A stretch of DNA of 64,000 nucleotides, from positions 1-64,000 of the forward strand of contig CAIRNJ010000004.1 of NCBI GenBank assembly GCA_903879915.1, given 5' to 3'. This DNA comes from an uncultured Elusimicrobia bacterium (GTDB taxonomy: Bacteria; Elusimicrobiota; Elusimicrobia; Elusimicrobiales; UBA9959). The notes beneath the pieces were generated by a model. The model saw only the letters and a program-made list of their open reading frames with translations. It did not search any database and had not been told where the DNA came from. The position numbers and the translations under genes are program-made. Of this stretch, positions 2 through 19,600 are shown in pieces; the first letter of the stretch is position 1, and every line of letters begins with the position of its first letter.

Positions 2-163
2 CTGCAGGGTTATAAAACCATAGTGCAGATATCTACCGCGGCGATAGATACCGACCTGCAAGGTTATAAAACCACGGTACAGGTATCAACCGCGGCAATC
101 AACGCCGACCTGCAGGGTTATAAAACCACAGTGCAGATATCCACCGCCGCGCTCAACTCTGAT
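2..163 (+). repeat. 54-bp tandem repeats encoding 18-residue units
   Basis: Three consecutive units start at 2, 56 and 110, each coding for a variant of LQGYKTTVQISTAAINAD. Two more units occur at 1382 and 1436, with degenerate ones following. The period is exactly 54 bp and in frame, so this is a protein repeat and not a CRISPR array. Confidence 0.85.
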
Positions 164-3100
164 CTGCAAACCTACAAGACTGTGGTGGCCTTGGATACCA
201 CCACCCTGCAGAATGTGAAAGCGGACAACAGCGCGGTGGTTCATTCTACCGGCGATGTTATGACCGGCGGCTTAGTGATGGCCAACAGTTCCACCATAAC
301 AGTAACCGGCAGCGCTTTCAGCGTAGGCGGCTCCACGCTGGTAGTAACCGCAGGCAACGTCGGCATCGGGACGGCGGCGCCGGGCTCATTGCTGGACGTG
401 AACGGCACGGCGCAGCTTCACGGGGCAAGCGGCGGTACCGGGCTTTATGTTAATGGCAGCGGCAATGTCGGCATCGGTACTACGGCGCCGGTCGCCAAAC
501 TTGATTTGGGGACATCTGGAGTAGCCCAAACTTTTTCATCAGGAGGATTAGGTTGGGGCGGCTCAACAAACACTGCTGGTTTCAGAACCGCGTGGAGCAC
601 CGGTTATGGAGCAAGTTTTGAGGCTTGGGATCCCGCCGCGCCGAAATGGGGTATTTATAAGTGGAATACAACTACTCCAGCCGTAGTAATGCAAGGGCAG
701 TATGACACTACAGACATTAATTTTACAGGCAGCGTCGGTATCGGGACGGTAGCGCCGTTGTCTAAATTAGATGTTTTGGACGGCTCAATAACGGTCAGAG
801 GGATGAATGCCGGCCTGGTGTTCGAAGACGCGAGCCGTGTAATAGCTCCGGAAACGACAGTTGACCTGGGCGCCGGCATACGGGTGTCCACCAATGTTTA
901 TATAGTAGGGTTCTCTTCCGCCGCCAAGTATTACGGCGACGGGTCCGGCCTTACCGGCGTAACTGTTGCGTCTCCGGTTGGTTCCGAATTATCAAGCGCT
1001 AATATTTGGGTCGGGAACGCCTCTAATAAGGCGACGGCGACAGGTTTGCTCGGTGACGTAACAATAAACAATACCGGTGTGACGGCGATAGGCGCCGGCA
1101 AAGTTACCAACGCGATGCTTGCCGGTTCGATAGCCGACAGCAATCTGGCTACAATAACCACTTCAGGCAAGGTGTCCAATTCCGCCACCACTGCGGCAAG
1201 CGCCAATACGGCCAATGCTATAGTGGCGCGCGACGTCTCCGGCAATTTCACCGCGGGTGTTATCACTGCAACCGCCTACTTGGGCAGCGGCGCCGGCCTG
1301 GCCGGAGTTATCTACTCCACCGCCGCGCTGCAAACCCAGATAAACGATGTTGCTGTTTCCACCGGAGCTATCAATGCTGACCTGCAGGGTTATAAAACCA
1401 CGGTACAGATATCTACCGCGGCGATAAATACTGACCTGCAGACGTATAAAACCACGGTGCAGCTATCCACTGCCGGGATAGTAGTCAACTTGACCAATGT
1501 AGCTGTGTCTACCGGCATGATCAATGCCGACCTGCAGTTCTATAAGAATACGGTGCAGACGTCCACTGCCGGAATAGTCAACAATCTCAATAGCGTTGCT
1601 GCGTCAACCGGCGCAATTAACACTGACTTGCAGTCCTACAAGACCACCGTGTCCGCGGCTACCACCACCCTGCAGAATGTGAAGGCGGACAACAGCGCGG
1701 TGGTCCATTCAACCGGCGACGTTATGACCGGCGGCCTCGTAATGGCTAACAATTCCACCATAACAGTAACCGGAAGCGCTTTCAGCGTGGGTGGTTCCAC
1801 GCTGGTCGTTGTGAACGGCAATGTTGGCATCGGAACCAATAACCCGACCGCGTTCATGTTGGACGTGAACGGCAGTATGGGGCCGGATTCTAATGATGTC
1901 TATGACATTGGGGCGTCTAACAGGAATTGGAACCGGGTTTATGTCTCTACCGTTATCGCCACAAATGTCAGCGCCACGAACGTATACGCCACATCCGTTA
2001 ACGCCGCAACTTTCAGCGGCGGTTTTGCTCCGGCCGGCTTTGTTGCCGGGCCGGTAGTATTCGGCGGCGCAGGTGGTGCCTTGGCGCAGAATAGCGCGCT
2101 TTTCTGGGATAACAACAATAAGTATCTTGGTGTTGGCGCGCAGAATCCGGTAAGCAAGCTCAATATAAGCAGCGGAACACTGACGATCGACGGAAATGTT
2201 TCAAATTCCATAATTGTGAGCGGCAGCGTCGGTATCGGAACTGCCAATCCTTTGGCGAAGTTGGATGTAAATGGATCTATTATAGCGAACCATGGAAATG
2301 GGTTGATCGCTCGCGGCGAGCCGGACCAACAGATTTACATATCTCATGACGGCAGCAAAGGAATAGTCAGTACCAGTTATTATACGTCCGGTATCGATAC
2401 CCCGCTTACCTTCGTAACTGCCAGTCAGGAACATGTCAGAATAGATACGAAAGGCAATGTGGGCGTCGGCACGGAGTGGCCGCAGGCAAGGCTGCATGTG
2501 GTTTCCACTTCAACAACCGACTCCGCGGTCTTTATAGTCAGCCACGCCCTTACCGGATACGGTCTTTTTGTCTCAACGAGCGCCAATGTCGGCGTCGGGA
2601 CTACGAGTCCGGCTGCTAAACTGGATGTGCAGGGTGGAAGTATTAATGCTCAATACGCGGTAAGTGCGACTAGCGGTGTGTTCTCGACCGCGCTGACCGT
2701 GGGCGGGAACGATGTGCTCACCACCGCGAGCGGCGCGGTGTTCCTGGCTTCAACGCAGACCTTTACCGGGTCGAATACGTTCAAGGATATCACCGCCGTC
2801 ACAATTAATGCCTCTTCCGCAGCGTTTACCGGCAACGACGGCGTTTACGGCCTGACAGTTTCGTCCAATGTTTCGCTGGCCGGCGCGCTTTATTCTGCTA
2901 ACGGGAACGTGGGCGTAGGGACCGCCAATCCGGCGGCGGCGCTGGACGTGAACGGACAGGTTAAGATAAGCGGCGGCGCGCCGGGCGCGAACAAAGTGTT
3001 GACGTCCGATGCGGGCGGGCTTGCTACCTGGCAGGTGGCCCCCAGTACCTTCTCGATCGGCGACAGCTATGGCGGCGGTAAGATATTCTGGATAGACCCG

Positions 3101-5665
3101 TTCGGGAAGCAAGTCCTGATCGCCTCTCAAGAGGACCAGAATGCAGGTGCATTTGTAAAGTGGTCCAACAACTCAAACACAACAGGGGCGACCTATGACG
3201 GTATTTACGCCGGGAAAGCTAATACCGTTCTGATAACCGCCAGCCAGGGAGCAGGCAATTACGCCGCGCGAATATGCTCCGATTACAGCGTTACTGTGAA
3301 TAACGAGTATTACGACGACTGGTATTTGCCCTCACAGTACGAACTAATGTTGTTGAATGCCCAAAAAAATGTGATCGGAGGTACTCTTAGTAACGCCTAT
3401 CACTGGAGTTCTACCGAGGAGACGTCTACATACTCAAAGGACGTGAACTTCTTCACTGATTCCCCGTCCAACAACCCTAAAACTCTCGAAGAACCCTTCC
3501 GTTGCGTCCGCGCCGGTCCGGCTACGTATATCGGGAATGTGCCCACGAACGCGGAAACCGTGACCGACGGGGCGTATGTATCGTCCACCCAAACCTTCAC
3601 CGGTTTAAATACCTTCAGAAATATAACCGCAGCCGCGCTTAACGCCTCTTCCGCCACGCTTACCGGCAACGGCGGCGTTTACGGGCTTACGGTTTCATCC
3701 AATGTCTCACTGGCCGGCGCGTTCTATACGGCCAACGGCAGAATAGGTATAGGCGCTGCGGCGCCGGCGGCCAGGCTGGATGTTATCGAGTCCGATACCG
3801 CCAATTCTGCGTACACGCTGCGCGTGGGCACGGGGACGGCCGACTACAGCGTAGTGGTTACTACGCGCGGCTGGGTGGGGTTGGGCAACAGGGATCCCAA
3901 AGGCCGCCTGCACCTTGTCGGTTCGGGGGAGGATTCCGGCATTATCATCGAGAACGTGTCGGCCCCGGAGAACGACCTATGGAACGGGCCGTGGATCGGC
4001 TCGGTAAGGGCGCGGAACACGGCGCCGGGGACAGTGGGAGTTGATGACGGGCTTGGCGCCTTCATTTTTATGGGCAACGACGGTGTTGACGGGGCGCAGG
4101 GGCCGTTCACTAACGCTTCCGCCATCAGGGCCGCGGTGGACGGGGCGGTGGCGGACAACAGCGTACCCGGCAGGCTGGAATTCTACACTTCTCCCGGCGC
4201 CGCCGGTTTGGTTGCGCGGCTGGTCATAAAGAACGACGGCTCGGTGGGTATTTCCACCGGCAACCCGCAGGCCGCGCTGGACGTGGTCTCCACCGGCACC
4301 GGGGCGGGCTATTACGCCCAGATCTGGCGCAATTCCAGCGGGCTCGCCGTGGCCACCATGACGGCCGACGGTCAGCTTTACGCTAACCTGGGCAACGACG
4401 GGCTGGGCAATCATATAGCTACCACTTCCCTGGATATGGCGGGGTATGCGGTAGTGAACGTGTCGACCATAGGGTTCACGGGGCTGGACGGCGGCATTGT
4501 CCTTGCGCCTTACCTGGACAAGACCAGGAACTACGCCTATTCGCAGGGCGTAGCCATAGGCAGCAACACTTACGACAATTACAGTTCCGGCGTGGGCATC
4601 GGCTACAACGCCTACGGCAACAGCGGCAACGGCGTGGGCGTGGGTTACGGCGCCAACAACAATAATAGCAGCGGCGTAGGCATAGGCAATAACGCCTCCG
4701 GCAACGCCACTTTCGGCGTGGGCGTGGGCAACGACAGTTCCGGGAACGGCCCTTTCGGCGTGGGCGTCGGCAATAACGCCTCCGGCAACAGCAACTTCGG
4801 CGTGGGTATGGGTTCGGGCGCTTCCGGCAATACTGATCATGCCGTGGGTATAGGCGCTTATTCGAGTAGTAACAAACCTTACGGCAGCGCGCTGGGCGCG
4901 TATTCCTACGCGGCCTCGTCGTCGGTGGCGCTGGGTTCCTACGCCAAAGCGAACGCCAAAGAGAGCATAGCCATCGGCGCGGGCACGGTTAATAACGATG
5001 AGGGGACGGCTAATTTCGGCGCGTATTCGATAAATACTTCAAGCAGTATTAACGCCTACGCGCTGAAGATCTCCACCGGCTTCGGGCCCATACTTGCCGT
5101 TTCGAGCGCCGGGGTGAAGATAGGCGACCTTTCCTATTCTTCGGAATCGCTGCTGAGCGTGCAGGGGCTGGCGACGGATAAGAACTTCGGGCTGGAGGAT
5201 ATCAGCCTTGGCCTGGAAACCATTATGCGCACCAAGGGCACCGGTCTGGAAGACATAGTGGCCGGCGGTAATTTCGAGGTGGACGTTGCAGGCTCGGACC
5301 AGGCCAGCCTGGTGGGCGGTCTGCGCACCTCCCTGCGCTTCAACTCGCTGTCGCATACTAAACAGGCTATAGGGCTGATGGTGGATTCTTTGTCCAATTC
5401 CGGTACGATAGATACTACCTACGGTATCTATATCGGCACCATGACCGCCGGAACGCAGACAAATGTTCCTTATGCGCTATATTCGGCGGATAAGAATGCG
5501 GTCGGTTATTTTGCCGGTAAAGTCGGGATCGGGACGGATACCCCGGCGGCGAAGCTGGAAGTGACCGGCGGGGCCATAAAAGCTACCGGCGGCCTGATAA
5601 TTGAAACCAGAACGTCCGACCCCGTAGTGCCGGTTACCGGGCAGATGTGGCTGCGGGTGGATTGA
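2..5665 (+). CDS. Large secreted repeat protein with DUF1566 insert and YadA-head-like repeats (5' partial)
   Basis: The reading frame is open from base 2, so the true start and any signal peptide lie before the window; about 1887 residues are visible. It opens with 18-residue LQGYKTTVQ-type repeats (54 bp), followed by many units of the form SVGGSTLVV..GNVGIGT..P..LDVNG, a tail-fibre-like module. Bases 3050-3540 encode a DUF1566/Lcl-type domain (WYLPSQYELM, YHWSSTEE, FRCVRAG), a family related to C-type-lectin folds. Bases 4570-4990 encode about eight 14-residue GVGIGNNASGN repeats followed by SVALGSYAKA, resembling the YadA left-handed beta-roll head. No YadA membrane anchor and no peptidase S74 chaperone is present at the C-terminus, which ends GQMWLRVD. 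Likely an extracellular fibre or adhesin; partner and export route are unknown. It precedes the coupled cluster that begins at 5754. Confidence 0.85.
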   Translation: MQGYKTIVQISTAAIDTDLQGYKTTVQVSTAAINADLQGYKTTVQISTAALNSDLQTYKTVVALDTTTLQNVKADNSAVVHSTGDVMTGGLVMANSSTITVTGSAFSVGGSTLVVTAGNVGIGTAAPGSLLDVNGTAQLHGASGGTGLYVNGSGNVGIGTTAPVAKLDLGTSGVAQTFSSGGLGWGGSTNTAGFRTAWSTGYGASFEAWDPAAPKWGIYKWNTTTPAVVMQGQYDTTDINFTGSVGIGTVAPLSKLDVLDGSITVRGMNAGLVFEDASRVIAPETTVDLGAGIRVSTNVYIVGFSSAAKYYGDGSGLTGVTVASPVGSELSSANIWVGNASNKATATGLLGDVTINNTGVTAIGAGKVTNAMLAGSIADSNLATITTSGKVSNSATTAASANTANAIVARDVSGNFTAGVITATAYLGSGAGLAGVIYSTAALQTQINDVAVSTGAINADLQGYKTTVQISTAAINTDLQTYKTTVQLSTAGIVVNLTNVAVSTGMINADLQFYKNTVQTSTAGIVNNLNSVAASTGAINTDLQSYKTTVSAATTTLQNVKADNSAVVHSTGDVMTGGLVMANNSTITVTGSAFSVGGSTLVVVNGNVGIGTNNPTAFMLDVNGSMGPDSNDVYDIGASNRNWNRVYVSTVIATNVSATNVYATSVNAATFSGGFAPAGFVAGPVVFGGAGGALAQNSALFWDNNNKYLGVGAQNPVSKLNISSGTLTIDGNVSNSIIVSGSVGIGTANPLAKLDVNGSIIANHGNGLIARGEPDQQIYISHDGSKGIVSTSYYTSGIDTPLTFVTASQEHVRIDTKGNVGVGTEWPQARLHVVSTSTTDSAVFIVSHALTGYGLFVSTSANVGVGTTSPAAKLDVQGGSINAQYAVSATSGVFSTALTVGGNDVLTTASGAVFLASTQTFTGSNTFKDITAVTINASSAAFTGNDGVYGLTVSSNVSLAGALYSANGNVGVGTANPAAALDVNGQVKISGGAPGANKVLTSDAGGLATWQVAPSTFSIGDSYGGGKIFWIDPFGKQVLIASQEDQNAGAFVKWSNNSNTTGATYDGIYAGKANTVLITASQGAGNYAARICSDYSVTVNNEYYDDWYLPSQYELMLLNAQKNVIGGTLSNAYHWSSTEETSTYSKDVNFFTDSPSNNPKTLEEPFRCVRAGPATYIGNVPTNAETVTDGAYVSSTQTFTGLNTFRNITAAALNASSATLTGNGGVYGLTVSSNVSLAGAFYTANGRIGIGAAAPAARLDVIESDTANSAYTLRVGTGTADYSVVVTTRGWVGLGNRDPKGRLHLVGSGEDSGIIIENVSAPENDLWNGPWIGSVRARNTAPGTVGVDDGLGAFIFMGNDGVDGAQGPFTNASAIRAAVDGAVADNSVPGRLEFYTSPGAAGLVARLVIKNDGSVGISTGNPQAALDVVSTGTGAGYYAQIWRNSSGLAVATMTADGQLYANLGNDGLGNHIATTSLDMAGYAVVNVSTIGFTGLDGGIVLAPYLDKTRNYAYSQGVAIGSNTYDNYSSGVGIGYNAYGNSGNGVGVGYGANNNNSSGVGIGNNASGNATFGVGVGNDSSGNGPFGVGVGNNASGNSNFGVGMGSGASGNTDHAVGIGAYSSSNKPYGSALGAYSYAASSSVALGSYAKANAKESIAIGAGTVNNDEGTANFGAYSINTSSSINAYALKISTGFGPILAVSSAGVKIGDLSYSSESLLSVQGLATDKNFGLEDISLGLETIMRTKGTGLEDIVAGGNFEVDVAGSDQASLVGGLRTSLRFNSLSHTKQAIGLMVDSLSNSGTIDTTYGIYIGTMTAGTQTNVPYALYSADKNAVGYFAGKVGIGTDTPAAKLEVTGGAIKATGGLIIETRTSDPVVPVTGQMWLRVD
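198..350 (+). repeat. Internal duplication within the first gene (copy 1)
   Basis: About 150 bp coding for LQNVKADNSAVVHSTGD..MTGGLVMA..STITVTGSAFSVGGSTLVV is repeated almost unchanged at 1662-1814, an offset of 1464 bp. Each copy follows a run of 18-residue repeats, so a whole repeat-plus-module block appears to have been duplicated. Confidence 0.8.
1662..1814 (+). repeat. Internal duplication within the first gene (copy 2)
   Basis: Second copy of the segment at 198-350, with only scattered differences at base level. It is followed by the same GNVGIGT entry into the next fibre module. Confidence 0.8.
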
Positions 5666-5753
5666 ACGGGTGGCGTGTACGCAGCGTGGCTCTTTTAGCG
5701 GGCGGTTGGGCAGGCGTTTATGCTGTGCCTGTGTTGTAAGGTGAATTATCTTT

Positions 5754-5921
5754 ATGAAAAAGAAGGGCTTGTACTCTAAGGATAGCTCAAATAAACGGAA
5801 TTTGCGCGCGCTGGCAAGGGCTATTATGCGTATGCCGTGCAACCGCAATAACGCCGATAAACTTTATGTTTATGAAAGCCAGCGGATCTACGCCGCTTAC
5901 TTCAAGGAGGTCGGCAAGTGA
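5754..5921 (+). CDS. Small basic protein of unknown function, 55 aa
   Basis: An ATG preceded by AAGGTGA opens a 55-residue frame starting MKKKGLYSKD and ending YAAYFKEVGK. Its TGA stop overlaps the GTG start of the next gene (GTGA), so the two are probably translationally coupled. The product is rich in Lys, Arg and Asn, with no signal peptide or membrane segment, so it is probably cytoplasmic. I do not recognise the family. The coupling suggests a partner of the nucleotidyltransferase-like protein downstream, for example an antitoxin-like or regulatory subunit; that is inference only. It is too short for many gene callers. Confidence 0.55.
   Translation: MKKKGLYSKDSSNKRNLRALARAIMRMPCNRNNADKLYVYESQRIYAAYFKEVGK
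5904..5910 (+). promoter_or_regulatory. Strong ribosome-binding site fixing a GTG start
   Basis: AAGGAGG lies seven bases before the GTG at 5918 and inside the 3' end of the 55-codon ORF. It supports GTG as the true start of the nucleotidyltransferase gene and coupled translation of the pair. Confidence 0.75.
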
Positions 5922-6448
5922 CTTCTGCTAATCCGTATCTTGCGCTTATCGGCAAACTGCGCCGCAGAAAGGTGCGTTTTGTTCTGGTGGGCGTTTTTGG
6001 CATAAACCATTACGCCGCCGGTCCTGCGTTGGCGTTTTCCACCCTGGATTGCGACATTCTGGTAGAGCCGAAGCCTGGAAATTTATTGCGGACTTTACTG
6101 ATACTGGAAGCGGATGGCTATGATCTGGGAACCAATGGGGAACCTCTGGGCGCTCTGGACCTTTGGCTTGCGCGCAGAATAATACGGAATAAGGCGTCTG
6201 TTTCAGCCACAAAAGAAAAGGCGGCGCAGGTCGATATCCTTATCAGCGTTGCAGGGTACACTTTTTTCAGACTTTACGCAGGCAGGCGTTTATTCAAGGC
6301 CGGCAGCACATCCGTGCCGGTGGCCAGCCTGGCGCATCTCATCGAGTCAAAAAGGAAATGCGGCCGGAAGAAAGACCTGGAATTTTTGCGCATCTATGAG
6401 GCCCAGCTCGGCCGGCTGGTAAATAAACGCGGCGGTGGCATATTATGA
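5918..6448 (+). CDS. Nucleotidyltransferase-fold protein (AbiEii/DUF6036-like)
   Basis: 176 residues from a GTG start with an excellent Shine-Dalgarno. Near residues 20-50 the motif FVLVGVFGINHYA is followed by STLDCDILVEP, matching the minimal nucleotidyltransferase pattern of a glycine loop followed by D-x-D. The C-terminal LAHLIESKRKCGRKKDLEFL resembles the K..gR.kD helix of DUF6036/AbiEii-like proteins. Such families include toxins of type IV toxin-antitoxin pairs and RNA- or protein-modifying nucleotidyltransferases; which activity applies here is unknown. The usual GG/GS of the loop is GV, so activity may be altered. It overlaps the 55-codon ORF by 4 bp and the next fibre gene by 4 bp (ATGA). 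An intracellular enzyme between secreted-fibre genes is unexpected. Confidence 0.6.
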   Translation: MTSANPYLALIGKLRRRKVRFVLVGVFGINHYAAGPALAFSTLDCDILVEPKPGNLLRTLLILEADGYDLGTNGEPLGALDLWLARRIIRNKASVSATKEKAAQVDILISVAGYTFFRLYAGRRLFKAGSTSVPVASLAHLIESKRKCGRKKDLEFLRIYEAQLGRLVNKRGGGIL

Positions 6449-7095
6449 AAAAGCCAAAACTGATTAGCGGTCTTTTTACAATTATCCTGTTCCTGGGGGT
6501 TCCCGGTCGCTTTTTCGCGGAAGACGCGGAGGTGAAGCTTAATTCCAACGACGGCTCCACCAAGATGATAGTCCAAGACAAGGACGCCAAGACCGTCTCC
6601 AGCTTCGATTCGGCCGGGAACCTTGTGGTTTCCGGTACGGCGACTGTGGCTGGTTCAAAATTCTCGGTTGGCGGCGCTACTCTTGTTGTTGCCAGCGGCA
6701 ATGTCGGTATAGGAACTACGAATCCGGGAGCGAAACTGGATGTTAATGGCAGCGCAAAGATCTCACGGTATCTTACCCAGGCCGCTGACACTGGCATTAC
6801 ACTTTCAACCGCCGATTTCGGTGCTACCATCACGGTGAACAGCGGCGCTACGCAGACCGTTGCCCTGCCTGCGGTAACAGCAAGCGATCTGGGCGCGCAG
6901 TTCACTATAGTGAAACAAGGCGTGGGAACGGTTATTGTACAGGCGGCGGGGGGTACTTCCATAGCGGATTCCACCAGCGGCGGAACGATCTACAATAATT
7001 CGGCGACTGAAACATACGCCACCATAACATTGCGCCTGACCAGCAGCACGATGTGGTCGATACTTGGCGGAAATGGTTCCTGGACTACTAATTAA
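6445..7095 (+). CDS. Short secreted fibre protein, cassette-a N-terminus
   Basis: 216 residues with a signal peptide (MKKPKLISGLFTIILFLGVPGRFFA, cleavage after about residue 25). The mature N-terminus EDAEVKLNSNDGSTKMIVQD through AGSKFSVGG is nearly identical in protein and DNA to the start of the 1177-residue protein at 9216. A single GNVGIGTTNPGAKLDVNGS module follows, then a beta-rich C-terminal domain (residues about 110-216) with TITVNSGATQTVALP and FTIVKQGVGTVIVQ, reminiscent of the closing domain of phage tail spikes and fibres. Its ATG overlaps the stop of the preceding gene (ATGA) and there is no independent Shine-Dalgarno, so it probably depends on translational coupling. Probably a surface or fibre component; receptor unknown. 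Confidence 0.75.
   Translation: MKKPKLISGLFTIILFLGVPGRFFAEDAEVKLNSNDGSTKMIVQDKDAKTVSSFDSAGNLVVSGTATVAGSKFSVGGATLVVASGNVGIGTTNPGAKLDVNGSAKISRYLTQAADTGITLSTADFGATITVNSGATQTVALPAVTASDLGAQFTIVKQGVGTVIVQAAGGTSIADSTSGGTIYNNSATETYATITLRLTSSTMWSILGGNGSWTTN
6526..6634 (+). repeat. Cassette a, copy 1 (shared N-terminal coding segment)
   Basis: About 110 bp starting GCGGAGGTGAAGCTTAATTC is repeated almost base for base at 9297-9405. Both copies sit directly after the signal peptide of a fibre gene. Confidence 0.85.
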
Positions 7096-7108
7096 GAGGG
7101 TAATTGTT

Positions 7109-8812
7109 ATGTTGTTAAAAATTATTAAGAGCGCGTTGTTCCCGGTTTTACTTGTCTGTTCAGCCGGAGTTATTCAAGCGGCCGGGATAACTCATGTGCT
7201 TGGTGCGAAAAAGAGCTTGCTGGCCCCCGCCAGCGATACGGTGAACGCCGGCTATTACTCTTCCACAACGCTGTCTGCGGTGGATACTGACCTTATACCG
7301 TGGAACCTCAGAAGCGGTGTGGTTGTATTCGGCAAGACGGGCACATTTACAAGCACCGCCACCGCGGTGGTGGGGGATATTCTAAGTGGAAAAACGGCTG
7401 GCGTTGCCGGAAATATTATTACTGGAACAATGCCGACACAGACGCTCAGCGTCGCTAATGATACGGTAACCGCCGGTTACTACGCGGGCACAACGCTGTC
7501 GGCGGTGGATGCTGATCTTATACCGTGGAACCTCAGAAGCGGTGTGGTTGTGTTCGGCAAGACGGGCACATTCACAAGCACCGCCACCGCGGTAGTTGGG
7601 GATATTCTAAGCGGCAAAACGGCGGGTGTTGCCGGGAACATCATAACCGGCACGATGGCCACGCAAACGTTGAATGTCGCCAACGACACTGTGAGTGCCG
7701 GCTATTACTCCGCCACAACGCTGTCTGCTGTGGACACGGACCTGGCGGCGGGGAATATCGCTGTGGGTAAAACCATATTCGGTTTCGGAGGAACCTATAC
7801 AAGCGACGCCAATGCCGCGGCGGCAAATATCTTAAACGGCCAGACGGCATATGTGAACGGAGTAAAGATCACCGGGAATGTGCCAGCGGGTTCCAGTGTT
7901 TCAGGCGGTAACGGGGTGAAAACTTTTACTATTCCTGATGGTCTTTACTCCGGATCCAAGACAGCTACCGCCAATGACGCTCTTTTGGTTGCGGGTAATA
8001 TAAAATCGGGGATAGCCATATTCGGTATAACGGGAACGTACACGAACCCTCCGCCGACGCCGGGTGTCGGAGGAACCTGGTTATTAGTTCCGGGAGATTC
8101 ATCGCTGGGGACCCGGGATTTTTATGTTATGAAATATGAAGCAAAGGATGTCGGCGGGGTGCCGACCTCTCAAGCAGCTGGAACTCCCTGGGTATCAATT
8201 ATACAATCGTTAGCCGAAACAAAATGTATGGCTCTCGGAGCGGGGTATCATCTTCTTACAATGGACGAGGCCCAGACAATATCAAGAAATATAGAGAGTA
8301 TCGGCTGGAACTGGACAGGTGGCAGTGTCGGTAGCGGCGGTTTATGGAGGGGGCATACCGATAACGCGCCGCCGAATACTTTAGAGGCAGATATAACAGC
8401 AGATCCCGATGATGACCCGTACACGGGAACAGGGAACATAGCTCCATCTATTGAAAAGAGGGTGTATCAGTTGTCATCCGGACAATACATCTGGGACTGG
8501 TCAGGAAACGTATGGGAGTGGCTGCATATGACCTGCGCAGGAGGCGCAGGAGTCGGGTTATGGGAGACTACTGGCTGGCTAGAGTGGAGTAATGCGGCTT
8601 TAGCGGACTATGAAAAGGGCAGGGCAGGGCCGGCAGGGAGTTACTCAAGCGCTCAAAACGCAGGGCAGTATTATGGTTGTACAGCAACTGCAAACCCGGT
8701 GCTCCGCGGCAGTAACTATAACGCCGGCGTGTATGGCGGGTTGTTCACCATCCTGGCGAACCAACTCCCATCCTACTCGGCTGACAGCGTTGGGTTCCGC
8801 TGTAGTAGGTGA
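7109..8812 (+). CDS. Secreted repeat protein with C-terminal C-type-lectin/FGE-like domain (candidate DGR target type)
   Basis: 567 residues from ATG 7109, preceded by AGAGGG; this start gives a clean signal peptide (MLLKIIKSALFPVLLVCSAG), unlike the upstream in-frame start at 7064. Residues 43-267 are three 75-residue repeats of the GYYSSTTLSAVDTDL..GVVVFGKTGTF type, plus a partial fourth. From about residue 323, WLLVPGDSSLGTRDFYVMKYEAK, the ALGAGYHLLTMDEA segment, IWDWSGNVWEW and the terminal VLRGSNYN..VGFRCSR form an FGE-sulfatase/C-type-lectin fold. This is the fold and end motif typical of variable proteins of diversity-generating retroelements. The last 35 codons hold many NNC/NNT codons (AGT AAC TAT AAC, TCC TAC, GAC AGC), as expected where template AAY codons were mutated. 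No reverse transcriptase or template repeat is in the window. Likely a ligand-binding surface protein. Confidence 0.75.
   Translation: MLLKIIKSALFPVLLVCSAGVIQAAGITHVLGAKKSLLAPASDTVNAGYYSSTTLSAVDTDLIPWNLRSGVVVFGKTGTFTSTATAVVGDILSGKTAGVAGNIITGTMPTQTLSVANDTVTAGYYAGTTLSAVDADLIPWNLRSGVVVFGKTGTFTSTATAVVGDILSGKTAGVAGNIITGTMATQTLNVANDTVSAGYYSATTLSAVDTDLAAGNIAVGKTIFGFGGTYTSDANAAAANILNGQTAYVNGVKITGNVPAGSSVSGGNGVKTFTIPDGLYSGSKTATANDALLVAGNIKSGIAIFGITGTYTNPPPTPGVGGTWLLVPGDSSLGTRDFYVMKYEAKDVGGVPTSQAAGTPWVSIIQSLAETKCMALGAGYHLLTMDEAQTISRNIESIGWNWTGGSVGSGGLWRGHTDNAPPNTLEADITADPDDDPYTGTGNIAPSIEKRVYQLSSGQYIWDWSGNVWEWLHMTCAGGAGVGLWETTGWLEWSNAALADYEKGRAGPAGSYSSAQNAGQYYGCTATANPVLRGSNYNAGVYGGLFTILANQLPSYSADSVGFRCSR
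7235..7909 (+). repeat. Three 225-bp tandem repeats
   Basis: Units begin at 7235, 7460 and 7685 with an exact 225-bp (75-codon) period. The first two are nearly identical at base level, including CTTATACCGTGGAACCTCAG; the third diverges in its second half, and a partial fourth follows. They make the stalk of the lectin-like protein. Confidence 0.85.
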
Positions 8813-8903
8813 GTGCGGGGAAAGGGTTTTGCTTCAAGTCTTCATGATCGGTTTCGTTGATGGGGATTAGAGGAAAAGAGTTCGCGGCGGCGGCGATAAG
8901 AGT

Positions 8904-9149
8904 ATGGTGATACGAGCGAAGAAAATTTTAACTACGGTCTGGCCGGCAATGGTGCTGATGCTGTTGCCGGCGCGCCGCGCTTTTGCCGATATTACCATTA
9001 ACAACAGTTCAATCTCGTTCAGCAATAACGCCGAGTCCGGGACCTCTACCATCACGATAAACGCCGGCGGCACGCTGAACGGCGGCGGTTCGAAAATAAG
9101 TGATTTGGGGAACTGGGCGAACTCGGGTGCTTTCAATGTCAGAAAATAA
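8904..9149 (+). CDS. Truncated N-terminal paralogue of the giant beta-helix protein (likely remnant)
   Basis: 81 residues: signal peptide (ending RRAFA) then DITINNSSISFSNNAESG to LGNWANSGAFN, followed by a stop after VRK. Roughly four of five residues match the first 78 residues of the 6321-residue protein at 13694, and the similarity includes bases around the start codon. Homology breaks off abruptly after GAFN, where the giant continues and this frame stops. It therefore looks like a leftover 5' end after deletion or replacement of a second giant gene, although a short secreted peptide could still be made. It lies between the lectin-like gene and the second cassette-a gene. Confidence 0.65.
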   Translation: MVIRAKKILTTVWPAMVLMLLPARRAFADITINNSSISFSNNAESGTSTITINAGGTLNGGGSKISDLGNWANSGAFNVRK

Positions 9150-9215
9150 TGGTAAAGTCTTGAGCTTTAGCGGTTTTTGTGCGAGCTACACTGGGAGATG
9201 GAAGGCTGGGATATT

Positions 9216-12200
9216 ATGAGAAAAAAAATATTGGTTAAAACTTTTTTGCGAATATGCCTGCTTTTAAGCGTGGCGCATCCCGCGTTCTCGGAGGACGCGG
9301 AGGTGAAGCTTAATTCCAACGACGGCTCCACCAAAATGATAGTGCAGGACAAGGACGCCAAGACCGTCTCCAGCTTCGATTCGGCCGGGAACCTTGTGGT
9401 TAACGGCACGGCAACGGTGGCGGGCTCGAAATTCTCGGTGGGCGGCTCCACGTTCGTAGTAAGGGACGGCAGCGTCGGCATCGGGACGACGGGTCCGGGA
9501 AGCAGGTTTGAGGTGGTTGGTGGCAGTTCCACATTCAGAGGTAGTAATAGTAATTTAGCCATAGCCGGGTTTACGGACGCGGGAGGAAATTACAGGGTAA
9601 TGATCTCAACAGGGGGTAACGTCGGCATAGGGACGACGGTCCCAGTGAGTAAACTAACGGTCAGCAGCAACATCAGTACACCGCAAGCGCCAAACACCGC
9701 AGGAGTGATGGTCCATGCTGCCGCAGCGGATGGTGTTACCTCCCGGCTGCTGCTTGATACCTATCAGGCGGCAGCCGGGAACGCAACCACGAGCGTTCTG
9801 AATCTTCGTCTGGCTCGTGGCACTGCCGCAGCACCGTCAGCCGTGCAGACCAACGACATGCTGGGGCTCTTTGCCGGCTACGGCTACGCCGCAACGGGCT
9901 ATTCCGGTGCGAAGGCTTCGATCCAGTTCAAGGTAGCAGAGAACTGGACGGACAGCGCGCAAGGCACGTACATGTCGTTCTACACGACGACTGCCGGAAC
10001 TACGTCGGCCGGAGAGCGCGTCCGTATAGATCCCAGTGGCAACGTTGGCATCGGGACGGATATCCCCGGCGCGAAACTGGAAGTTGTCGGCGCAATATTG
10101 GCCAGTTCGGCCAGCTTTACAGCTACAGGCTCCGGCGCGGAAAATGTAGGGTTGAAAGTGTCCAGCAGCGCTTATTTAGCTACCTTGGGCGGCAATGTCG
10201 GCATCGGCACTACCGGGCCGGGATATAAGCTCGATATCCAGAACGGCGATATCAACGCTTCCGGAAACCTTCGCGAGGCTGGTACGGCCTTGTCCGGAAA
10301 ATACGCTTATGTGGGGGGAGCTAACGCTTCCGGCACCTGGCTTATAACTGCAAGTACCGCCAGCAGCGTGGCTTGGACCGGCGTGACCAGCAAGCCTCTC
10401 TGGATGCAGGCGACGCTGCTCACCGCCACGATGGCCAGCGCGAACAGATCCATGCCCAGCGGTTTTTACGAAGCTAATTCTGGCACGAATTATCCAACGG
10501 ATGGGACCTGGTATAACCTTATCAACTCGCGGCACCAGAGCGTTTCTGACGACCACGGTTTCCAGATAGCGGCCAGTTACTTCGACGAGAACGTCTGGAC
10601 CAGGACCTACCAGGGCGGTACCGGCAGCAACGACGGCACCTATACCCCCTGGAAGAAACTGGTCCGCGAAGAAACGGGCCCCTGGGCTTTGAGCATAACC
10701 GGCAACGCGGCCAGTGTTTCCAACGGCGTTTATACTAATGCCGCGAATTCATTCTCGCTTATAAACCCCTTAACCACTATCGCGGAGTCCTGGGTGGGGC
10801 CAAGTTCAACTGCCGGCATATACTTTAAGGGCGGCAATGTGGGGATAGGAACTACTGCTCCGGGTACGGCGCTTGACGTGAACGGTGTGGCTAACGCCGC
10901 CACCGGTTACCGCGTGGCCGGCGCGGCAGCGAGCGGCAATTATCTGCGCGGCAACGGAACCAACTTCGTGGCCAGCGCCATACAGGCCGGCGACGTGGCC
11001 GCGGCTATAGGCGGCACTCCCGCTCTTACCCTGGGCACCAGCAGCGGGGCGGGCTCAGCCACCACGTTCGTGCGCACCGACGCCACGCTATTGACCTTTG
11101 ACTCCACTAACCCGGCGGCGCTGGGGACGGCCGCCCCCGGTTCGGCGGCAGCAGCCGCGCGGCGCGACCATGTTCATGCCGCGGCCGACCTGGCCGGCGA
11201 TTCAACTACGGGTCTCCTTCCTGTAAGTAAAGGCGGAACAGGCCAGGCCACGTCCGCCACCGCCGGCCGTTACCTGAAAGGCGACGGGACGAACTGGGGG
11301 ACATCGTCCGGTTCCCCCTCAGGTACAGGCGTTTGCGGGGCAAATGCGTGGGCGTCCACGCTTAACAGCGACGCCGCGCCCACCTGTACGCAGCCAGGGT
11401 TCTCCAATCTAAGCGGCGCGGCCACGCTCGGGCAACTGCCCCATGGTTCCGTAAATCAGATCCTGGGCACCAACAGCGTCGGCACCGCCGAGGAGCAAAA
11501 GACTTTATCCGTGGGGACCGGCGGGACCGATTTCGCCATTGCGCACGCGGCGAATTCTATCACGTTCAACCTTCCCGACGCGTCCGCCAGCGCGCGCGGC
11601 GCGGTAACGACCGGCGCGCAGACATTTGCCGGCGCCAAGACCTTCAGCAGCGCTATAACCGGGCCCACCGTCACGAACACCATCAACAGCGTGATTATCA
11701 ATGCCGGAGCCGTTTCCGGCGTGACTACTTTGGGGATGAACAATCAACTGACCAATTCATCTGCCGGCGCGGCCGCGTTCAACCTGACCGGCAACGGAGC
11801 GGGCGTCACTTTTACGGGAACCGGGCCGAATCAGATAATCACCGCTTCGGGGGTCAATCTGGCTCTTATGCCCGGAGGAGCCGGTAATGTAGGCATCGGG
11901 CTTACGAACCCGGGGGCGAAACTTGAGGTGGCGGGCGGCAGCATGACGGTGCGGGCGCTGGACTCTATGGCGGGCATTGCCGCTTTCCAGGCCCAGAGCG
12001 GGAGTTATCGTTTACTGGTAGCAACTGACTCGGTTAAATTTCAGCCATATTTCCCTGTCTATTTCAGCGATAACTCCGGCTGGGGCGGCGGGATCCGCTA
12101 TGACCAGGCCGGCAACGAAGCGCTGATCATGGCTACGCGTAACCCGGCCACGAAATTATATTTCGCCACCGGCTATAATTTCGCGCTGAACCCGGGGCAA

Positions 12201-12831: not shown

Positions 12832-13623
12832 ATGGATGAACGTGAAATGATAAAGGACAAGGTGCGGGAGGAGTTTTGGCTGAAGCGCTGCTGGTGCTGG
12901 TTCTGGTGCTGGTGCCGCCGCTGCTGCCGCCATTCCTGTGACATCACCGGCGCGGTGAAGATGCTGGCCGGGGGTGCGGCCCCTCACGGCTGGCTGCTCT
13001 GTAATGGCGCCGCAGTGTCCAGAACTACTTATCTCGCCCTGTTTAACGTAATCGGAGAAAGATACGGGGCCGGTGATGGTTCAGCAACATTTAATCTGCC
13101 AAATCTTGTGGACAGGTTCCCAAGAGGAGTTGCCGCGGATCCGGGCGCTGGCGCCGGGAGCGACAGCTGTGCTCTGCCCGCGACGAATTTGCCTTCGCAT
13201 ACTCACGGTATCGCGGGTGTGACCGTAGCGCCTGAAAGCGCGCACACGCATGGAAGTTCGTATACAGTAAGCGGCGGATCCCATTCGCATTCTGCGGACC
13301 TGACAGCGGACGAAGCCGGCGAGCATGCCCATTCGCTGACCGCTTTATCGCAAAACCAGGGCGGGACTCCAACTGCTCTTGCAGTTACGGATTATGAAAG
13401 TTTCCCCGGCTTATTTACGGGCAGCGCCGGCGCGCATAGCCATTCAGTTTCGGGGACAACGGGTTCTGCCGACTTAAGTCTTTCGATAGGCGGCAATTCC
13501 GGGGCGGGCAGCGAACATATCCATGTGCTTTCCGGCTCGACAGCTTCTGCCGGCTCTGATTCTCCGGTGGAAATAGATACCGTACCGGCGTACACGGCGC
13601 TGCTTTTTATAATAAAAATGTAA
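12832..13623 (+). CDS. Phage tail collar-domain protein with Trp/Cys-rich N-terminus
   Basis: 263 residues; the start is fixed by a strong AGGGGAGGAAAG six bases before the ATG. Residues 43-100 (GWLLCNGAAVSRTTYLALFN, FNLPNLVDRFPRG) are a phage tail collar domain (PF07484 type). Residues 100-245 carry at least six H-x-H motifs (SHTH, AHTH, SHSH, EHAH, AHSH, EHIH), the pattern that binds metal in the T4 gp37 tip. The end, YTALLFIIKM, is typical of collar/microcyst-dependent proteins. Most unusual is residues 16-36: Trp at 16, 21, 23, 25 and 27 and Cys at 20, 22, 26, 28, 31, 32 and 36, in a basic context with no recognisable signal peptide. This could insert in a membrane, bind metal or form disulphides; I know of no such family. 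It sits between the large fibre gene and the giant gene, like the lectin-like gene in the upstream block. Confidence 0.8.
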   Translation: MDEREMIKDKVREEFWLKRCWCWFWCWCRRCCRHSCDITGAVKMLAGGAAPHGWLLCNGAAVSRTTYLALFNVIGERYGAGDGSATFNLPNLVDRFPRGVAADPGAGAGSDSCALPATNLPSHTHGIAGVTVAPESAHTHGSSYTVSGGSHSHSADLTADEAGEHAHSLTALSQNQGGTPTALAVTDYESFPGLFTGSAGAHSHSVSGTTGSADLSLSIGGNSGAGSEHIHVLSGSTASAGSDSPVEIDTVPAYTALLFIIKM

Positions 13624-13693: not shown

Positions 13694-16600
13694 ATGGCGA
13701 TACGGGCGCGGAAAATATCAGCTGTGGTCTGGCCGGCAGTGGCGCTTTTGCTGCTGCCGGCGGGCCGCGCCTTTGCCGATATTACCATTAACAACGGCTC
13801 CATCTCGTTCAACAACAACGCCGAGTTCCGGACCTCTACCATAACGATAAATGCCGGCGGCACGCTGAACGGCGGCAGCTCGAAAATAAGCGTTCTGGGG
13901 AACTGGGCGAATTCGGGCGCGTTCAACGCCGGAACGTCAACGGTGGCGTTCGAGAACAGTTCGGCCGCTTCCGTCATTACGGGGAGCAACACCTTTTATT
14001 CATTTATTTCGGCAGCCGCCGGCAAAATAATAAAATTCGCGGCCGGCTTAACCCAGACGGTGAGCAATCTGTTCTCGGTCACCGGCGCGCCTGGAAATCT
14101 CGTTAAACTGCGTTCCACAACTGCTGCTAAGTGGTCCATAAATTTACCGAACGGTCCCCAGACAGTTACTTCTGTGGACGTAAAGGATTCGAATGCCAAC
14201 ATAAATACCGTAACCGCGGCCGGCTCGCGTAATTCCGGGAATAATAACGCGAATTGGGTTTTCAGCGATATGCCGGCGGATTGCGCTGTAGGTGTAACCG
14301 TAAAAAAAGACGGGACGGGTGACTATTCTTCCATACAGGCCGCGATTGATGCCATGGATAAAAATCTTGCGGGCAACGCCTGTGTGATAATCCGGGACAC
14401 GGCCACCTATTCCGAGCAGGTGACAGTGCAGGGGTTCGCCAATAACGGCTACCGGCTGATAATAATGGCGGACTCCACTTTTGTGAGTTCCGCGCCGGTT
14501 ATCAACCCGCCGGTGGCGTCCACGGCCGCGTTCCAGATAATGAACGACAGCGTGACCTTGCAGAACCTGACCGTTACGAGTACCAATACGGTACCTTATG
14601 GCATTCTGGTCTCTTCCTCCTATGTTACTGTATCGAGCGTTACCGTGCAGGACGCGGGCAACAATATTGGGACGGCCGGCCTGGCCTTGTCTTCAAACTG
14701 GGCTGTAGTCTCATATTCCAGCATGTCGGTTACAAAAGATCCGCTAGCTATACAGATATCCGGTTCCTCTAATACGGTAACGCAGTGCTATATTGCGAAC
14801 AACGGCTATGGAACGGAGGATTTTGGCTGCCCACTTACCCTGAACGCCGTTTCCCTGGCTATTACCGGCAGCAATAACCAGGTTCTGCAAAGCACGGTGG
14901 TGGGCGGCAACGGCAACACGCTAGCAAGTTGTTACGGAGATGGCGGCAGCACTTACGGTATTTCTATTACCAGTTCTTCCGGTAATAATCTCTCGGACAT
15001 AAGAATTATTCCCGGCGGCGGTGGCAGCCCCTTACCTGGCGTAGGTGCTGGCGCCACTGGCGGCGGTGGTGGCGGATCCTGGTACAACCCAGGCGGTAAT
15101 AGCTATGCCCTTTATCTCTTTAATGCCTCCACTAACACTATTTCCGGAATTACTATAGATGAAAGTGGTGGAACCGGGGTTAGTAATGGTTATAGTTATG
15201 CGGGCGGTGGCGGCAGCAGCGGCGGCGGCGGCGGCGCGGGCAGCATATATAACGGCGGCAGCGCCTATGCCGTAGCCCTTATTGATAGCTCCTCTAATAC
15301 ACTCTCCGGCATAACTATAACGCAGAGTGGCGGCGCCGGCGGGGGCGCCGCTTCAGGTGGTGGTGGCGGGAGTGCTGGTGGTGGTGGTGCATCTAATAGT
15401 ATTTATGGAGGTGGCGGCGGCAGCGCCTATGTTGTTTACATGAGTAACAGCTCTTCTAATACACTCTCCGGCTTTAATATAACGCAGAGCGGCGGTACTG
15501 GCGGCAATGGCGGCGGCGCGGGCGGCGGCGCGGGCAGCGGCAGTATAGGCATAAACGGCGCAGCCTATGCGATGTATATGAACGGCTCCTTCAATAAGTT
15601 CCTTAACAGTTCTATCTCCATAACGGGCGGAACGCCGGGTGCAGGGGCTTCCAGCGCCACGGCCGTTATCGCTTTGGTCAGCGCCTCGAGCAATACGTTC
15701 TCGAATATCGCCATGAGCGGGGCCAGCGGACTGGTTTTAGATATAAATTCCGCTTACAACACCGTGAGTTTCAGCACCATCACAAGTTTGATGAGCGACG
15801 CGCGGTATTTCGGCTATTACAGCAGCGGGCCGTATAATACTGCCAGTCAGAGCAATTTCGCCGGCTATTACGGCGCCGTGCTGGGCGGCGGCGGCGCTAA
15901 ATTCAACAATATCAGATACAGCACTATGACCAGCGCGTCGGGCGTGGGACTTTACTTTAACCAGGCCTCGTCCAATACCGCCGTAACCAACTATGTCCAG
16001 GGCTCTACCGCGGTTTATGTGTCCGCTTCCACCGGCACCGTGCTGGGGGACAACAGGGTGGTCTCAACTTATCCTTCCGGTTGGGGTTTATGGATATCAA
16101 ACCGCAGCCGCAATTTAACGCTTTCATCCAGCACCATTACGGGCGGGGCGCAGGGCGCGGGGATCTATCTTGGCGCCAATAACTCAGGCGCTCTAACGCT
16201 TTCCTCCAACACTATCGGCGGCGGGCTGTACGGCATGAATATCGCCGCGCAGGTCACCGGTTCGGCGCTTTCGGTGAGCAGCATCACTTTCCAAAGTCTC
16301 AGCCCCGGGGCTACGGCTATTAATTTCCTCGGCGGGCAGTTCGTCTCTACCTTCACGGGGATAGGGTTCAACAGTTCGAACATAACTAAAAATATCAATG
16401 GCAGCGCCCTGGCGGCCGGCTCGCGCATTACCATACACAATTCCGCCGGGGTCAAAGACGGCCCCGCTTTGGAGAACGACCCCTCCGATTATGTGGACTG
16501 GCCGGACCACCTCTGCGACACAAGGACGAGTATTAATAACGGCCTTTGGTCTTCGAATAGTACCTGGGACGAAGGCGTTGTGCCTTCTTTCTGCAGCCTG

Positions 16601-19600
16601 GTAGTCATCGCCACGGGGACTATTGTGACCATAGATACTATGACCGCGGTTTCTTCCACGGCTACTATTAACGGGACTTTGCAGGCCAGCCGGGTGGTGA
16701 GCTCAAGCTGGACCCTGGTGGGCGGAAATATTAATGTCAGCCCCGGCGGCACGCTGGATTACGGCACGGAGGCGGATGTTATTCCCCAGGGAGTGAACGC
16801 CCAATTGCTGCTTGCCATGGGCGCGTACGCCGGGCAGTACGGGCTTATCGTGAACAACGGCGGCAATTTCACCGTGCGCGGTTCAACTAAAACGCCGTAT
16901 TCATTCGCAACACAGAGCATTACTGCCGGCCAGACAAGTCTTACGGTTTACGGCTCCACTTCCACCGACGGCTGGCAGACAGGGGATGTGATATCCATCG
17001 GTCCTACTTCGGGCCAAGGCATTGCAACCACCTCGACCCGTACTATTACGAATATTTCGGCCGGGCCGCTCTACACTATAAGCTGGTCGGGCGGCACTTT
17101 GCCGCAGGCCCGGCTGCTGTCCTCCACTAGTCCTATCATGGTGGGCAATCTCACGCGCAATGTTCTGGTTCAGTCCTCGGGAACCGCTGGTACGGACGGA
17201 GCCTATATTCAAAACCTGGCGCAGAACGCTACAAGTTTCGCGCTCGCCTACGGTGAGTTCGCATACCTGGGCGCCAGCGTCAGCGGTTCAAAATACGGCA
17301 TAGCCTTTGGCGCCCAGACAAAGGGTTCGATCTCGAGTTCAACCGTACGCAATGGCTACGACGGAATATACCTCTACTCGGCTTCCTCTGTTACCCTGAC
17401 CGGGAATAATATATATTCCAACTCAAACTACGGTATTTACCTTAACTATTCAAATAACAACACGTTGACCGGGAACAATTCCTATTCTAACACGGGCGCC
17501 GGCTTTTACTTCGACAGCGCTTCAATTAACACTCTGACCGGTAACAATTCCTATTCGAACTCAAACGCCGGTATTCGGCTCTACAGCTCCTCCAATAACT
17601 CTTTAGCCGGTAATAATTTTTACTCCAACTCAAACATTGGTGTTTACCTCTCCGGATCATCCAGTAATATATTGACCGGGAATAATTCCTATTCTAACTC
17701 AAGCGTCGGCATACTTTTTGAAGGTTCATCCAATAGGAACACCTTGACCGGTAATAATTCCTATTCCAACTCAAGCGTCGGCATTGACTTCGGCGGCGCA
17801 TCCGACAATCTCTTAATAGGGAATAATTGCTACTTGTCCAACACAAACTTTGGTATTCATTTCTATCAGTCGTCCAACAATACCTTGATCGGTAATAATT
17901 TCTATTCCAATTCGACCGCCGGCCTTTTTGTCGAAAACTCCGCCAATAATACTTTTGTGGGCGGCAACATAGGCTATGACGGTGCCGGTGTGAGCCGCTC
18001 CAATGCCGTGGCTGAAATTAAGTATTTCCCAGGTAATCTCAAGACCGCCATTCTTAAAGGCGTTCGCGTCAACCCGGCTGTGGGTATCTCCACTGCCGGC
18101 ATGGACACAGCCGGCAGTTACCTGCTGTCATATAATCAGGACGCGGATACCGGCACGGTGCGCATCTGGGGCAATTACCAGCTGGCGGGTTCCACGCTCA
18201 CGCTGGATTATGCTTCGCGGCTGTATGTTTCTACAAGTACCGCTTATAAACTTATGCGCGGTACGGGGCATTCCATTAATAATGTGGTTACTAACGACGC
18301 AACTACTCTTTCGGAGCTTATAACGGTTCAGCATACCGGTGGTAATTCATGGACCGTCACAGGTTCATCTTCAGGCTTACTAGGTGCGCCGTTTACCTGC
18401 CCGGGCTCCTGCAACTTCAGCAATAGTAAGGTTTCATTCACGCTCATTCCCGGCGGCACGCGGAATGTGGACGATATGCTGGATTTTGTGACTATCGCCG
18501 CATCAAACGATGCTAATATCCGGAAGAAACTGTTATTCGGCCCCGGTGCCTCAACCCTCAACAATGGACACTCCAAACTTGAGGTGGCTTCAACAGGCGG
18601 CTTGGTGCTGCGCGGCAAAGACGACGGCACAGCCAACACCTTAATAGACTGGCTGGGCGCCGGCTCCACCTATTACACTTTTGTGGATTCGGGCGCGTTC
18701 ACGGCGCTTTATTCTTCCTTCACCAATATGGACCAGGGCGGCATACAGCTTTCGGGCTCGGCGGGTGTGGCTATTTCTTCTTCCACGTTCGACTACCTGG
18801 GCTTTGCCGCCGGCACCAACGCTTTTATTACCGCGCGCAGCCTTGTTTCTAACGCCGTTCTGGACAATGTTACTTTTGCGCTGTCCCGTTCGTCGGCCGC
18901 TTATTCCGCTTATAACGTGTGGGTGGACGGTACGGACTCCGGCCTGAATTGGACCATGACGAACCCGGCGGGCGCCCTTTGGGGCGAGAAGTATGATAGT
19001 GACCTTAACAGTAAGGTAGCCTGGGTGAACTGCGGCGCTATCGTAAGCGTACAGTCGGGTGGCTGGTCCATCCCCGAGATCTGGGACCCCCAGACCACGC
19101 CTTCGGCTTGTACTACCGTTACCGTGGCCTCCGGGCATACGGTAACCATCGATACTATGACCGCGGTTTCCTCTACCGCTACCATTAACGGTATTTTGAA
19201 GGCCAGCCGTGTGGTGAATTCGAGCTGGACCCTGGTAGGCGGCAATCTTAACGTGAACTCGGGCGGCACGCTGGATTACGGCACCGAGGCGGACGTTATT
19301 CCAACGGCCATTAATGCTCAGTTGGTGCTGGCCTACGGCGCCGCGGCCGGGCAGTACGGGCTTATAGTTAATAACGGCGGCAACTTTACCGTGCGCGGTT
19401 CAACCAAAACGCCGTATTCTTACGCCACGGCGGACATTACTACCGCCGTTAATAGCTTTACGGTTTACGGTTCGACCTCGATCGACGGCTGGCAGGCGGG
19501 GGATACTATAATAATCGGCCCGACCTCGGGCAGCGGGACAGGGACGACAGCAAGCCGCACCATTGCCGGCATCAATACCGCAGCTGCGCCTGTCTATACC

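What the first reader, a model, noticed from the sequence alone, without database searches (positions are those of the whole stretch)
8075..8812. C-terminal domain looks like a diversity-generating-retroelement variable protein
The domain has the FGE/C-type-lectin layout (FYVMKYEAK, GYHLLT, IWDWSGNVWEW) and ends LRGSNYN...VGFRCSR, the end shape of known DGR targets. The last 35 codons are rich in NNC/NNT codons at the positions that are AAY in templates, and the 3' part is A-free over GTTGGGTTCCGCTGT, as at initiation sites. No reverse transcriptase or template is in the window, so it may be a remote target or a fossil.
Basis: partly seen in the sequence, partly recalled or inferred. Interest (0 to 1): 0.7.

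Follow-up and report, generated by a model that had tools for sequence, protein, structure and literature searches.

The report
Orphaned target of a lost mutator element
This groundwater-type bacterium carries an intact surface-protein gene whose tail end was once rewritten by a diversity-generating retroelement (DGR, a natural hypermutation device); close relatives still have the whole device, but this genome has lost the reverse transcriptase and the template, so the gene is a frozen leftover of a known kind of system.

Summary
The C-terminal domain (8075-8809) of ORF 7109-8812 has no Pfam or NCBIfam hit, but its predicted fold is closest to the solved DGR variable proteins TaqVP and Mtd. 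A related Elusimicrobia MAG holds a homologue (68% identical) inside a complete DGR cassette: variable protein, bAvd, adenine-rich template, DGR-type RT. There VR and template differ at 17/26 template adenines but only 4/87 other bases. The window's VR (8699-8809) aligns to these templates without a gap. In the window's own draft genome (99% complete) no RT, Avd, template or second copy was found. The window VR keeps an excess of changes at template adenines (14/26) but has also diverged at 21/85 non-adenine bases, equal to the flanking framework (24%) and above the median in genomes with a DGR RT (7%). An active DGR would have overwritten those bases. The framework is under purifying selection (dN/dS about 0.08-0.2). 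Best reading: an intact, still-selected DGR target, orphaned long enough ago for its variable region to drift at the background rate. Orphan DGR targets are already described in Treponema denticola, so this is a new member of a known kind.

The parts
7109..8812 (+). Orphan DGR-type variable protein gene, 567 aa; N-terminal hydrophobic stretch looks like a signal peptide (by eye)
   Evidence: ORF list; start ATG 7109 chosen by inspection
7228..7743 (+). Tandem repeat of about 225 bp (2.3 copies), probable stalk or spacer of the protein; similar repeats lie in the N-terminal part of the cis-DGR variable protein of G114
   Evidence: TRF; G114 ORF translation; PHROG matches of unknown function
8075..8698 (+). 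Framework of the FGE-type C-type-lectin domain, under purifying selection
   Evidence: Homologues at 46-73% identity; dN/dS 0.08-0.20 where dS could be estimated; fold match to TaqVP/Mtd/TvpA
8699..8809 (+). Former variable region (VR), 37 codons, gapless against templates of related DGRs; drifted at non-adenine sites
8789..8803 (+). A-free segment GTTGGGTTCCGCTGT at the place of an initiation-of-mutagenic-homing (IMH) site; core GGGTTCCGCTG identical to the templates of G114:C221 and G124:C17
   Evidence: sequence comparison; function inferred

Best explanation
The gene encodes a probably exported surface protein whose C-terminal FGE-type C-type-lectin domain is the display scaffold of a diversity-generating retroelement. 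In an ancestor, a DGR (RT plus bAvd plus adenine-rich template) copied the template RNA with random bases at adenines and pasted it into codons 8699-8809, up to the A-free IMH-like end, giving many binding-site variants. This lineage then lost the RT, avd and template. One variant was fixed, the scaffold stayed under purifying selection, and the former variable region has since drifted like the rest of the gene. Shown: homology to a cis-DGR target, adenine-focused difference from related templates, absence of DGR parts in the assembly, drift of non-adenine sites, selection on the framework. Inferred: the past mutagenesis in this very lineage, surface location, ligand binding, and that the gene is now static.
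For: Complete DGR in relative G114:C221 (L060 = JAKLQJ010000265.1, Elusimicrobia bin N2.88): VP 68% identical to the window domain, bAvd (PF22296, 7e-21), template 2637-2747, RT 2943-3995 with DGR motif IGNLTSQ. VR/template differ at 17/26 A vs 4/87 other. Further cis DGRs in G114:C23 and G119:C51, and template+avd+RT in G124:C17. Window VR vs best template: A 14/26, non-A 21/85; framework vs G114: A 0.21, non-A 0.24; VR non-A equals framework (p = 0.89) and VR A exceeds it (p = 0.001). Non-A departures of window and nearest homologue G137a are almost all private (2 shared, 14 + 9 private), so they look like independent drift. VR non-A divergence is lower in genomes with a DGR RT (median 0.07) than without (0.18), p = 0.002. 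Own genome: no RVT_1, no DGR RT, no Avd, no template by DNA or by VR/TR profile. Same-genus G128 keeps two VPs but only a 35-aa RT remnant, and G119's RT has lost about residues 81-151: DGR decay seen in relatives. Framework dN/dS 0.08-0.20. Fold: TaqVP, then Mtd, then PvdO and TvpA.
Against: The genome is a 112-contig draft with 4.5% estimated contamination, and DGRs on phages or islands can be lost in binning. Templates of different DGRs differ from each other by up to 21% at non-A sites, so part of the 25% could reflect an unknown, divergent template. The window's adenine excess is modest on its own (p = 0.006-0.011), the closest template was picked after looking, and template adenines sit at weakly constrained codons, which drift faster anyway. 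The model is of middling confidence (pLDDT 71.6) with low TM-scores (0.48 to TaqVP).
Confidence: 0.8

Rival explanations
1. Remote target of a live DGR: the RT, avd and template exist in the organism (missing contig, plasmid or prophage) and still rewrite this VR in trans.
For: Draft genome in 112 contigs. Fresh-looking VRs occur in other genomes without a detected DGR RT, such as G134 and G143. Remote targets are known in T. denticola (PMC4891356).
Against: Assembly 99% complete with no RT, Avd or template found. VR non-adenine sites have diverged as much as the framework, which retrohoming would have reset unless the unseen template is itself that different.
Confidence: 0.13
2. An ordinary FGE/C-type-lectin surface domain that was never DGR-diversified; it merely shares the fold and end motif with DGR targets.
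For: The C-type-lectin fold is common; enzymes such as PvdO and formylglycine-generating enzyme also match the model.
Against: It groups in a 100/99-supported clade with a cis-DGR target, aligns gaplessly to DGR templates over the VR, keeps the IMH-like core, and shows an adenine-site excess absent from the framework.
Confidence: 0.05
3. The gene was acquired alone, already diversified, by horizontal transfer or recombination from a DGR-bearing relative, so this lineage never had the DGR. This is a sub-version of the orphan reading and overlaps with it.
For: Patchy distribution (13 of 341 genomes of the phylum). The framework tree is unresolved for window, G137a and G114 of another genus.
Against: Neighbouring gene families recur next to the homologue in G137, and RT remnants in the same genus suggest loss in place. 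Not decisive.
Confidence: 0.25

Closest known systems
DGR of Elusimicrobia bin N2.88 (G114:C221, JAKLQJ010000265.1), found here
   Same: 68% identical variable-protein domain, similar stalk-like repeats, gapless VR, same IMH core
   Different: There avd, template and RT lie within 2.4 kb downstream and VR matches the template at non-adenine sites; here all three are missing and the VR has drifted
Orphan target genes in Treponema denticola isolates lacking RT and TR (PMC4891356)
   Same: Target genes left behind without RT and template, read by those authors as remnants of core DGRs
   Different: Different phylum and protein; this report adds a drift measure (non-adenine divergence equal to the framework)
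TaqVP (PDB 5vf4), Mtd (1yu0), TvpA (2y3c)
   Same: FGE-type C-type-lectin fold with the VR at the C-terminus; TaqVP and Mtd are the best structural matches, TvpA ranks ninth
   Different: Sequence identity 11-16%; those come from DGRs whose RT and template are present
Formylglycine-generating enzyme / Pfam FGE-sulfatase
   Same: Parent fold
   Different: No Pfam match for the window protein; catalytic function neither expected nor tested

Membership tests
DGR variable protein (target) | C-type-lectin (FGE-type) or comparable display fold | tested here: met
   AlphaFold model, pLDDT 71.6; best PDB matches TaqVP (E 4.5e-5) and Mtd, with TvpA at rank 9
DGR variable protein (target) | C-terminal VR homologous to a template region | tested here: met
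   8699-8809 aligns without gaps to templates of related DGRs
DGR variable protein (target) | VR/template differences concentrated at template adenines | tested here: inconclusive
   Excess present against relatives' templates (14/26 vs 21/85, p = 0.006) but weaker than in RT-bearing genomes; no own template exists to compare
DGR variable protein (target) | IMH-like invariant 3' end | tested here: met
   GGGTTCCGCTG core identical to two related templates; function not tested
Working DGR cassette in this genome | DGR-type reverse transcriptase | tested here: not met
   No RVT_1 hit (control genomes ring) and no hit to a DGR RT from the same family (which rings in 54 of 341 genomes, group II types included)
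Working DGR cassette in this genome | Template region in the genome | tested here: not met
   DNA search with own VR, with a related template, profile of 21 VR/TR peptides, scan of the window
Working DGR cassette in this genome | Accessory Avd | tested here: not met
   (only a 12-bit match below cut-off)
Working DGR cassette in this genome | Population-level variation confined to the VR | not testable with these tools
   no reads or strain series available

The most novel reading that the evidence does not exclude
In Elusimicrobiota, DGRs act as transient 'seeders': they diversify a family of surface lectins, are then lost, and leave frozen, selected variants and paralogues (two to six copies in G126, G137 and G123, genomes without a detected complete DGR RT) that persist as an inherited repertoire. 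The window gene is one of these.
Probability: 0.3. Interest if true: 0.6.

Novelty: new member of a known kind. Interest (0 to 1): 0.38.

Why it matters
It shows how to recognise a DGR target after the DGR is gone, from sequence alone: adenine-site excess against relatives' templates, with non-adenine divergence equal to the framework. It adds DGR targets and DGR decay in Elusimicrobiota (no paper on DGRs in this phylum was found in the held library beyond one incidental co-mention) and offers loci where the fate of a diversified protein after loss of the mutator can be studied.

Tried and rejected
Pfam and NCBIfam on the window protein: no family. Sequence search of PDB: nothing significant by phmmer; the profile's best but weak hit is TaqVP, E 0.2. 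Phage, plasmid and viral-contig searches for the domain: no relatives. RTs in G137, G139 and G134 were considered as DGR RTs and rejected: they carry QGG(P/V)(L/I)SP, the group II intron type. A shared divergent template as the cause of the window's non-adenine changes: disfavoured because window and G137a share only 2 such changes. Debris of RT or avd downstream of 8812: none. The pair scan of L148 and L153 gave many rows that look like an artefact of masked N runs and was ignored for those loci. The first homologue alignment took minus-strand loci in the wrong orientation and was redone.

Full report
What is in the window. ORF 7109-8812 (+) encodes 567 aa: a hydrophobic N-terminus, tandem repeats of about 225 bp (7228-7743) and a C-terminal domain from 8075. 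Pfam and NCBIfam have no family for it; PHROG 2889 (unknown function) matches part of the C-terminal domain at 7e-15.

Relatives. In 341 genomes of the phylum, 13 (including this one) have the domain. Named relatives are Elusimicrobia MAGs, plus Auribacterota and single MAGs labelled Ca. ainarchaeum and Parcubacteria. A reverse-transcriptase search in the same family put an RT on the same 4.7-kb contig as the 68% homologue in G114. That contig (L060) is a textbook DGR: variable protein 3-1694, bAvd 2247-2600, template 2637-2747, RT 2943-3995 with IGNLTSQ. VR and template differ at 17 of 26 template adenines and 4 of 87 other positions. G114:C23 and G119:C51 show the same signature in cis (16/23 vs 1/85 and 15/23 vs 2/88); G124:C17 has template, avd and RT. 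Some VPs of relatives carry the same VR module on a different, FGE-like framework (G119, G128).

Own genome. Searches in G000 (3.37 Mb, 99.16% complete, 4.5% contamination, 112 contigs) found no part of a DGR other than this gene: RVT_1, the G114 DGR RT, Avd by sequence and by family, template by own VR DNA and by a related template, and a profile of 21 VR and template peptides, which finds only 8699-8809 above noise. The RT, template and VP searches do find these parts in relatives; the Avd sequence search was run on this genome only. The G114-template DNA search by itself is not sensitive enough to recover even the window's own VR, so the own-VR search and the profile carry the template result.

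Fossil or remote target. Retrohoming overwrites the VR with template copy, so in a live system the non-adenine bases of VR and template stay nearly alike. In genomes with a DGR RT the median non-adenine divergence to the nearest known template is 0.07, in those without 0.18 (p = 0.002; rows are not independent, G119 with a damaged RT was counted as RT-bearing, and one RT-bearing genome, G151, has a divergent VR at 0.27). The window has 21/85 = 0.25, the same as its framework against G114 (110/459 = 0.24, p = 0.89), yet adenine sites remain more changed (14/26) than framework adenine sites (32/149, p = 0.001). Its non-adenine departures and those of the nearest homologue G137a are mostly private (2 shared, 14 and 9 private). 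This is what an abandoned VR should look like. The framework meanwhile has dN/dS of 0.08-0.20 (synonymous sites are near saturation, so the values are rough).

Tree. Without the VR, window, G137a and the cis-DGR target of G114 fall in one clade of nine (100/99) with unresolved order at its base. DGR decay is visible elsewhere: G128 (same genus) has two VPs beside a 35-aa piece of DGR RT, and the RT of G119 lacks about residues 81-151.

Fold. An AlphaFold model from 17 sequences (pLDDT 71.6, pTM 0.76) matches TaqVP best (E 4.5e-5), then Mtd, with PvdO, TvpA and formylglycine-generating enzymes following. In the viral library the best matches are tail-fibre and FGE-like phage proteins. PMC6328139 describes the FGE subtype of the C-type-lectin fold as the scaffold of TaqVP, TvpA and Mtd, and the final VR residues as the likely IMH.

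Known or new. PMC4891356 describes T. denticola isolates with target genes but no RT or template, read as remnants. PMC8144416 surveyed more than 30,000 DGRs but only targets near an RT, so orphans such as this one would have been missed. I therefore call it a new member of a known kind.

What remains inference: that mutagenesis happened in this lineage and not before an acquisition of the gene, that the protein is on the surface, and what it binds. The rival 'acquired alone' overlaps with the orphan reading, so the confidences do not sum to one.

Noticed in passing
L060:1821-2195(-); L133:1436-1912(-); L136:2231-2590(+); L064:6941-7291(+); L062:5869-6456(-); L138:7036-7332(-): A coiled-coil-like ORF (starts like MNNTDKSEPATKADI..., no Pfam hit) recurs near, mostly downstream of and antisense to, DGR variable proteins in several Elusimicrobia loci; possible accessory gene. 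Not found in the window.
   Followed up: partly
L136 (G128:C43) 2035-2139(-), 2824-5856(-), 6006-9191(-): Two variable proteins beside a 35-aa remnant of DGR RT: a DGR apparently caught after deletion, in the window's genus.
   Followed up: partly
L134 (G119:C51) 4303-5045(-): DGR with template and VR but an RT lacking about residues 81-151 (two separate pieces).
   Followed up: partly
L062 (G151:C180) 9085 and 9948: A second kind of cis DGR in the genus: VR/template pair with 17 adenine mismatches and 0 others in 80 bases, with a different variable protein.
   Followed up: no
window 23-5665, domain near 3260-3510: Another C-type-lectin-like domain (Pfam Lcl_C, below cut-off) inside a 1880-aa repetitive surface-type protein in the same gene cluster.
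   Followed up: no
window 12832-13623: Protein with a phage tail collar domain (PF07484, 1.7e-21) among giant surface-type genes.
   Followed up: no
window 13694-32659: 6321-aa ORF with Kelch, fibronectin III, G8 and beta-helix domains in its C-terminal part.
   Followed up: no
window 6520-6660 and 9290-9440: Two neighbouring genes share a near-identical N-terminal segment (EDAEVKLNSNDGSTKMIVQDKDAKTVSSFDSAGNLVV), flanking the orphan target.
   Followed up: no
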